Shown here in pieces: positions 1 to 41,689 of a stretch of 64,000 bases of DNA (its first letter is position 1; each line of letters starts with the position of its first letter). The translations under genes and the position numbers were made by a program. The stretch is taken from positions 19,849 through 83,848 of the forward strand of contig CABZDW010000003.1 in NCBI GenBank assembly GCA_902524545.1. Reading direction: 5' to 3'. The notes under the pieces are model-generated. The model was not told the origin of the DNA. It saw nothing but the letters and a program-made list of their open reading frames with translations, and did not search any database. The stretch comes from an uncultured Pelagibacteraceae bacterium (GTDB taxonomy: Bacteria; Pseudomonadota; Alphaproteobacteria; Pelagibacterales; Pelagibacteraceae).

Positions 1-567
1 AGGATTACCAGTCGTTCCAGATGTATAAATTATACAAGCAAGATCTTTCCTTTGTAGATTTTGATTAAAACTTATTTTAGGGTCTAATTTCTTTTTTTTT
101 AAATATTCATCAAATATATTTTCTATATTCTCAACCCTTTCATTTATGCTTTCAATAGATAAAACTTTTATTTCATCTGAGATAAATTTTTCAATTTTTT
201 TTAATTGGATTTCATTAGAAACGATACAAATTTTTGGCTGACAATCATTAATAATATATTCATAGTCCCCCTCTGAATAAGTTGTAAATAATGGTACTGT
301 GACACCACCTGCATTCATAATTGATATGTCAGAGATAAGCCACTCAGGTCGATTTTCAGACAACAGGATACATCGGTCTCCTACGGTTACATTTTCTTTC
401 AAGTATTCAGATAAAATTTGAATTTTAGAAGCAACCTGTTCCCAAGTCAAAAAATCTTTTTTATTTTCTTTTAACCATTTTAAGAATGGCTTATCAACAA
501 CTGGATTTATTTCTCTGTACTTTGTAAAAAAAAGTTCAACTAAACTGTTTATTCTATTTAATTGCAT
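1..567 (-). CDS. AMP-binding acyl-CoA synthetase/ligase, partial (runs off window start)
   Basis: Reverse strand reads open from ATG at 567 to the window edge; the end contains an IYTSGTTGNP AMP-binding P-loop motif. Confidence 0.85.
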   Translation of the reverse strand, partial: MQLNRINSLVELFFTKYREINPVVDKPFLKWLKENKKDFLTWEQVASKIQILSEYLKENVTVGDRCILLSENRPEWLISDISIMNAGGVTVPLFTTYSEGDYEYIINDCQPKICIVSNEIQLKKIEKFISDEIKVLSIESINERVENIENIFDEYLKKKKLDPKISFNQNLQRKDLACIIYTSGTTGNP

Positions 568-40160: not shown

Positions 40161-41689
40161 CTAATACTTTAATTTAATATCTTGATAATTAAAAGCTTTG
40201 ATAAAATATGACAGTCCAAAATAAAAAATTATTGTGAATAAAACACATAATAATAAATAAGCAGACTTGAAAAAATAGGCATAACTTAATTGATTTTCAA
40301 ATAATAAAATCAGGTATTGAAAGAAAACACCCATCATGATTGATGCAAAAATTATCTTAACAAATTGTTTAAAAAAGTTTTTTCAAACTCAAACAAATTA
40401 TCATTTTTTAAATAGATAAATAATGTTAAGGAATTAAACCAGGAGGATATTGTTGTTGCTATTGGAATAATTATAAAACCGATATCTTTAAAAAAGTAAA
40501 TACTTATCAAAATATTTAGTAAAACAGATACTAAAGAAATATAAAATGGAGTTTTGGTGTCATGATTTGCAAAAAAAAATGTAGAAAAAACCTTTATTAA
40601 TGCAAATGCTGGGAGTCCTAAACTAAAATAGTAAAGAGCATTTGAGGAATTTAAAACTGAGTTTTCTACAAAAGAACCATATCCAAATAAAGCTGAAATA
40701 ATTTGCTCAGATCCTATAACTAATGCTACTGATGCAGGTATACTTAAAAACATACTTAGCTCTAAAGCTTTATTTTGAATTAGTGATATTTTCTTCTTTT
40801 TTTTTTGATGAACATGCTTTGAAAGCTGAGGCAGGACAACAACACCAATAGCTATTCCAGCTATTGCCAAATTAATTTGGTATATTCTATCAGCATAATA
40901 TAAGTATGATACAGCACTCGCTTGGAACGAAGCTATAATTGTCCCGACTAAAATATTTATTTGTGTAACGCCAGAGGAAAAAATACTTGGCAATAATTTC
41001 TTAAAAAAAAACTTTACTTTATTAGTTATTTTAAATTTAAAACTGAAATTTAAAACATAATATTTTTTTACAAATTTATATAAAAAAATTAATTGTAATA
41101 ACCCTGAGATAGATATTCCGTATGAGAGATAGTAAATTAATTCATCTCCTAAATATCTTCCAAAAAATAAAATGGAAATTAAAACTATATTTAAAATAAT
41201 AGGCGCTGCTGATGCGGCCGCAAATTTATTATGCGAGTTTAAAATGGCACCAAAAAAAGAAGATAAACTTACAAACATTAAAAAGGGGAAAGTAATTCTG
41301 GTTAAAGTAGTTGCCAATTCAAATTTTTTAGTGTCTTCGACAAAGCCGGGGGCTATTAATCCTACAAAAATTGGCATAAAAATTTCAGTTATTAGAACTA
41401 AAAAGAATAAAATTAAGAATAATAAATTAAAAACATTATTGGCAAATATATTTGAACTAGATTTATTTTTAACTAATTCAGAAGTGTAGGTAGGAACAAA
41501 GGCTGAATTGAAGGTTCCCTCAGCGAAAAGTCTCCTAAAAGTATTCGGTATCCTAAACGCAACAAAAAAAACGTCAGCCAAAAAACTTGTTCCAAGAAAA
41601 ATTGCTATTAAAACATCTCTCAAATATCCAAGTAATCTGCTGATAATAGTATAGAAACCAAAAGTCCCTGTTGACTTAACTAAATTCAT
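40161..41689 (-). CDS. murJ: lipid II flippase MurJ, split by a -1 frame change at about 40367-40373
   Basis: N-terminal 445 aa (40352-41689) is MurJ; the -1 frame after TTTAAAC continues QFVKIIFASIMMGVFFQYLILLFENQ...KAFNYQDIKLKY to stop 40161. Confidence 0.8.

What the first reader, a model, noticed from the sequence alone, without database searches (positions are those of the whole stretch)
40161..40390. murJ interrupted exactly at an in-phase TTTAAAC slippery heptamer; missing C-terminus intact in the -1 frame
The annotated MurJ ORF stops early (445 aa, ending EKTFLNNLLR*). On the minus strand the sequence reads GAG TTT GAA AAA ACT TTT TTA AAC AAT. T TTA AAC matches the X XXY YYZ frameshift heptamer in the correct zero-frame phase. 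A -1 shift there gives QFVKIIFASIMMGVFFQYLILLFENQLSYAYFFKSAYLLLCVLFTIIFYFGLSYFIKAFNYQDIKLKY*, which looks like the missing MurJ transmembrane helices. That frame ends at 40161, only 3 nt before trpS, removing an otherwise anomalous ~195-bp gap. Explanations are programmed -1 frameshifting, transcriptional slippage on the adjacent A6/T6 runs, a true indel (e.g. T7 to T6), or a sequencing/assembly error.
Basis: partly seen in the sequence, partly recalled or inferred. Interest (0 to 1): 0.7.

Follow-up and report, generated by a model that had tools for sequence, protein, structure and literature searches.

The report
One-base deletion breaks SAR11 murJ
A single missing T or A in a homopolymer run splits the murJ (lipid II flippase) gene in this one SAR11 genome assembly; nearly every relative examined has the gene whole, so this is an ordinary private mutation or an assembly error, not programmed frameshifting.

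Summary
murJ (40352-41689, minus strand) stops at codon 446 of what should be 510. The missing C-terminus lies intact in the -1 frame and ends 3 nt before trpS. Recoding is not supported.

106 distinct complete relatives from the same genus encode an uninterrupted 509-aa MurJ. The nearest ones (about 90% nucleotide identity) mostly carry ACTTTTTTTAAACAA (T7A3) or ACTTTTTTAAAACAA (T6A4). The window has ACTTTTTTAAACAA (T6A3), one base fewer. The 'in-phase' slippery heptamer T TTA AAC is simply the conserved codons TTT AAA CAA (Phe-Lys-Gln) read one base out, so its coincidence with the break follows from the deletion.

There is no notable downstream RNA structure (z = -0.22). In-phase TTTAAAC occurs 89 times in 810 ORFs of this genome. 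Comparing 834 kb of this assembly with a single-contig relative found 4 frame-split genes among 697, all small length changes in or beside homopolymers, including a folC-like ligase and a highly conserved amino-acid permease. A published single-cell MDA indel rate (1-2 per 100 kb) covers this.

Most likely an assembly or amplification error, next most likely a recent private mutation. Raw reads would decide.

The parts
40352..41689 (-). murJ, first 445 codons up to the premature stop (lipid II flippase, Pfam PF03023 positions 1-415 of 451)
40368..40376 (-). T6A3 tract, 9 nt; intact close relatives have 10 nt (T7A3 or T6A4): site of the one-base deletion (which base of the tract was lost cannot be told)
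40367..40373 (-). TTTAAAC heptamer, in phase T TTA AAC only because of the one-base loss; in relatives the same letters are codons TTT AAA C..
40352..40354 (-). premature TAA stop created by the frameshift
40161..40367 (-). displaced MurJ C-terminus (68 codons plus stop) in the -1 frame, i.e. the ancestral frame

Best explanation
This is an ordinary SAR11 (Pelagibacteraceae) murJ gene that has lost one base in a T/A homopolymer tract (10 nt in intact close relatives, 9 nt here) in this assembly only. The loss shifts translation into a frame that stops within a few codons, and the original reading frame continues in -1. The lost base is either an error of single-cell amplification, sequencing or assembly (about 60%) or a very recent private mutation of the sampled cell (about 35%). 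The one-base difference from relatives is shown; which of the two caused it is inferred.
For: Relatives: 166 of 201 genus genomes have a murJ match, and nearly all those listed at full length have one open frame of 508-511 codons. Of the loci read, 106 distinct complete CDSs all encode exactly 509 aa. Twelve have ACTTTTTTTAAACAA and three ACTTTTTTAAAACAA where the window has ACTTTTTTAAACAA, and the pairwise alignment with G298 shows a single gap there. Error load: 4 of 697 testable genes are frame-split in 834 kb of this assembly relative to G298. All four are small length changes in or beside homopolymers (murJ T7 to T6, folC-like A6 to A7, livM-like T5 to T6, carboxyltransferase A-run longer). 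PMC4577099 reports 1.1-2.3 indels per 100 kbp for single-cell MDA assemblies. The window tail shows 7 synonymous and 3 non-synonymous differences from its relatives' consensus, with no decay, as expected for a very recent event or an error.
Against: A second genus genome, G065, is also frame-broken in the same few codons in the same direction (T8 tract, TTT TTT TAA). One could read this as a recurrent, tolerated site. Its tract and sequence context differ, so it looks like a separate homopolymer event. That the window comes from a single amplified cell is inferred from its relatives' records (AG-... isolates) and its fragmentation (27 contigs), not stated by any record.
Confidence: 0.95

Rival explanations
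1. Programmed -1 ribosomal frameshifting at T TTA AAC makes full-length MurJ in this species.
For: The heptamer fits X XXY YYZ in phase, the tail is intact and the -1 frame ends next to trpS.
Against: No intact relative uses it: the site is read straight through. The heptamer is an automatic by-product of losing a base before TTT AAA C. The folding energy of the site and downstream 110 nt is no better than shuffles (z = -0.22, 78 of 200 fold as well). In-phase TTTAAAC occurs 89 times in 810 ORFs, against a codon-shuffled mean of 70 (range 56-94), so it is neither rare nor avoided.
Confidence: 0.015
2. Transcriptional slippage on the T6A3 or neighbouring A6 run restores the frame in part of the mRNA, so the lesion is real but partly tolerated.
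For: The genome is very AT-rich, with 6292 A/T runs of 6 or more in 834 kb; slippage at homopolymers is known from AT-rich genomes (own knowledge).
Against: No evidence specific to this site. murJ contains longer runs (T8, T9, A10) that stay in frame. It needs the deletion to be real and kept, which no close relative shows.
Confidence: 0.02
3. A real split gene: truncated MurJ (445 aa) plus a separately initiated C-terminal fragment from ATG at 40337 (58 aa).
For: ATG ATG lies shortly after the stop, in the tail's frame.
Against: This stretch is the conserved MurJ sequence of the relatives (IIMG / IMMG), not a new start. No relative has a split gene apart from the differently broken G065.
Confidence: 0.015

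Closest known systems
MurJ lipid II flippase (Pfam PF03023)
   Same: The sequence is murJ; the 445-aa part covers positions 1-415 of 451 of the family model, and the intact relative covers 1-447.
   Different: One base is missing, so the last 64 or so residues are out of frame.
Homopolymer indels in single-cell (MDA) genome assemblies
   Same: Small length changes at A/T runs, scattered over unrelated conserved genes of the same assembly, at a rate within that reported for such data.
   Different: Raw reads were not available here, so error and real mutation cannot be told apart.
Programmed -1 frameshifting (dnaX, IS3-type)
   Same: An X XXY YYZ heptamer in phase and an open -1 frame.
   Different: No conservation of the arrangement, no stimulatory structure found, and a one-base difference from uninterrupted relatives.

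Membership tests
Programmed -1 ribosomal frameshifting | Slippery X XXY YYZ heptamer in zero-frame phase | tested here: met
   T TTA AAC at 40373-40367, but it follows automatically from the deletion
Programmed -1 ribosomal frameshifting | Arrangement (interrupted frame plus slippery site) conserved in relatives | tested here: not met
   106 distinct intact CDSs, all one 509-aa frame; nearly all full-length matches in 201 genus genomes are one open frame
Programmed -1 ribosomal frameshifting | Stimulatory structure 5-9 nt downstream | tested here: not met
   z = -0.22 for the site plus about 110 nt downstream; pseudoknots were not tested
Programmed -1 ribosomal frameshifting | Joined protein product seen | not testable with these tools
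   no proteomics available
One-base homopolymer deletion (error or private mutation) | Close relatives have exactly one more base in the tract and one open frame | tested here: met
   T7A3 or T6A4 in relatives against T6A3
One-base homopolymer deletion (error or private mutation) | Other homopolymer indels of the same sort in the same assembly | tested here: met
   three more among 697 genes
One-base homopolymer deletion (error or private mutation) | Raw reads: mixed tract length (error) or uniform 9 nt (mutation) | not testable with these tools
   reads not held
MurJ (PF03023) | Score above the family's gathering cut-off | tested here: met
   376.8 bits against a cut-off of 27.4

The most novel reading that the evidence does not exclude
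The deletion is real and fixed in this SAR11 species, and slippage on the T/A tract (translational or transcriptional) restores enough full-length MurJ for the cell to live, making murJ in this lineage dependent on recoding.
Probability: 0.03. Interest if true: 0.5.

Novelty: not a real feature. Interest (0 to 1): 0.05.

Why it matters
It matters mainly as a caution. In AT-rich genomes a one-base loss just before a TTT AAA C codon pair always produces a perfect in-phase 'slippery' heptamer with an intact -1 frame. Such candidates should be checked against relatives before recoding is proposed.

Tried and rejected
Programmed -1 frameshifting: rejected on relatives, the by-product heptamer and lack of structure. 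Second murJ copy in the genome: none. Decay of the tail by relaxed selection: none visible (7 synonymous to 3 non-synonymous differences in the tail against 93 to 24 in the rest), though numbers are small. G065 as a second case of the same arrangement: it is broken in the same codons but in a different tract (T8, stop TAA directly in the run), so it looks like a separate homopolymer event rather than a shared programmed site. Apparent short murJ frames in G006, G105, G111, G169 and G200 run to contig ends, and G136, G144 and G164 are cut by contig ends with the C-terminus in one frame. Literature: no paper in the library holds both MurJ and 'programmed frameshift'. Same-species strains are not held (one genome per species).

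Full report
OBSERVATION. On the minus strand the window reads GAG TTT GAA AAA ACT TTT TTA AAC AAT TTG TTA AGA TAA. The murJ ORF is 40352-41689, 445 aa, the only murJ in the genome. The -1 frame from the heptamer runs to a stop at 40161, 3 nt before trpS (40157). Its 68 residues match the C-termini of intact MurJ proteins of the genus at up to 94% identity.

RELATIVES. The window lies in a SAR11 genome (27 contigs, 1.06 Mb, 89% complete). The closest named loci are single-cell 'uncultured Pelagibacteraceae' assemblies. In 201 genus genomes, 166 have a murJ match, and those listed at full length have one open frame of about 510 codons, apart from the window and G065; the other short frames checked end at contig ends, or, in G163, lack the N-terminus. 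Of the loci read in full, 106 distinct complete CDSs all encode 509 aa. At the site twelve of them read ACT TTT TTT AAA CAA and three ACT TTT TTA AAA CAA, both 10 nt of T/A after AC. The window reads ACTTTTTTAAACAA, 9 nt. Alignment with G298 (one contig of 1.2 Mb) has exactly one gap in this stretch. The window's murJ is therefore an intact gene minus one base. Which base of the run was lost cannot be told.

WHY THE HEPTAMER SITS AT THE BREAK. In the relatives TTT AAA C.. is in frame (Phe-Lys-Gln). Losing one base before it makes the ribosome read ..T TTA AAC, which is the X XXY YYZ pattern in phase, and the -1 frame is then the original frame. The match, its phase and the intact -1 tail are one fact, not three. 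In-phase TTTAAAC is common in this AT-rich genome: 89 in 810 ORFs, codon-shuffled mean 70, range 56-94. The site and downstream sequence fold no better than shuffles (z = -0.22).

BACKGROUND OF SUCH BREAKS. ORFs of G298 were compared by tblastn with 834 kb of this assembly. Of 697 testable genes, 690 are covered to more than 90% by a single match and 4 are frame-split: murJ (T7 to T6), a Mur-ligase family protein resembling FolC (A6 to A7), a branched-chain amino-acid permease 99-100% identical on both sides of the break (T5 to T6), and a carboxyltransferase (longer A run). The reverse comparison gave 5 apparent splits in G298, some at N-terminal ends and one that merely reflects this assembly's own break in the permease; the one inspected is an extra base in a G run. 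A published benchmark gives 1.1-2.3 indels per 100 kbp for single-cell MDA assemblies (PMC4577099). About 0.5 coding indels per 100 kb here needs no special mechanism. Such breaks of conserved genes in several unrelated places argue for an assembly-wide cause rather than a device of murJ.

G065. One other genus genome is broken in the same codons, also leaving the tail in -1. There the run is T8 and the stop TAA lies in it; the flanks differ. It looks like a second, separate homopolymer event. G163 lacks the murJ N-terminus at an apparent junction with the preceding gene.

VERDICT. One-base homopolymer deletion, as error (about 60%) or recent private mutation (about 35%); recoding, slippage or a true split gene together about 5%. 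Shown: the one-base difference, intact relatives, the by-product nature of the heptamer and other such breaks. Inferred: the cause of the loss. Interest 0.05.

Noticed in passing
L142 (G065:C4:38850-38870): A second SAR11 genome has murJ frame-broken in the same codons as the window, in a T8 run of different sequence; probably an independent homopolymer indel.
   Followed up: partly
G000 C14:89-1352, C6:11613-12981, C6:17051-17993 (outside the window; L192, L184): Three further genes of this assembly (a folC-like ligase, a livM-like permease, a biotin-dependent carboxyltransferase) are split by small homopolymer length changes relative to G298.
   Followed up: yes
L147 (G163:C2:41141-41471): In this relative murJ lacks its N-terminal 110 or so residues, the preceding gene running into it; a deletion or misassembly.
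   Followed up: partly
G298:C1 about 140200 (counterpart of window 1-567): The relative G298 has an extra base in a G run that splits a gene intact in the window's genome.
   Followed up: partly
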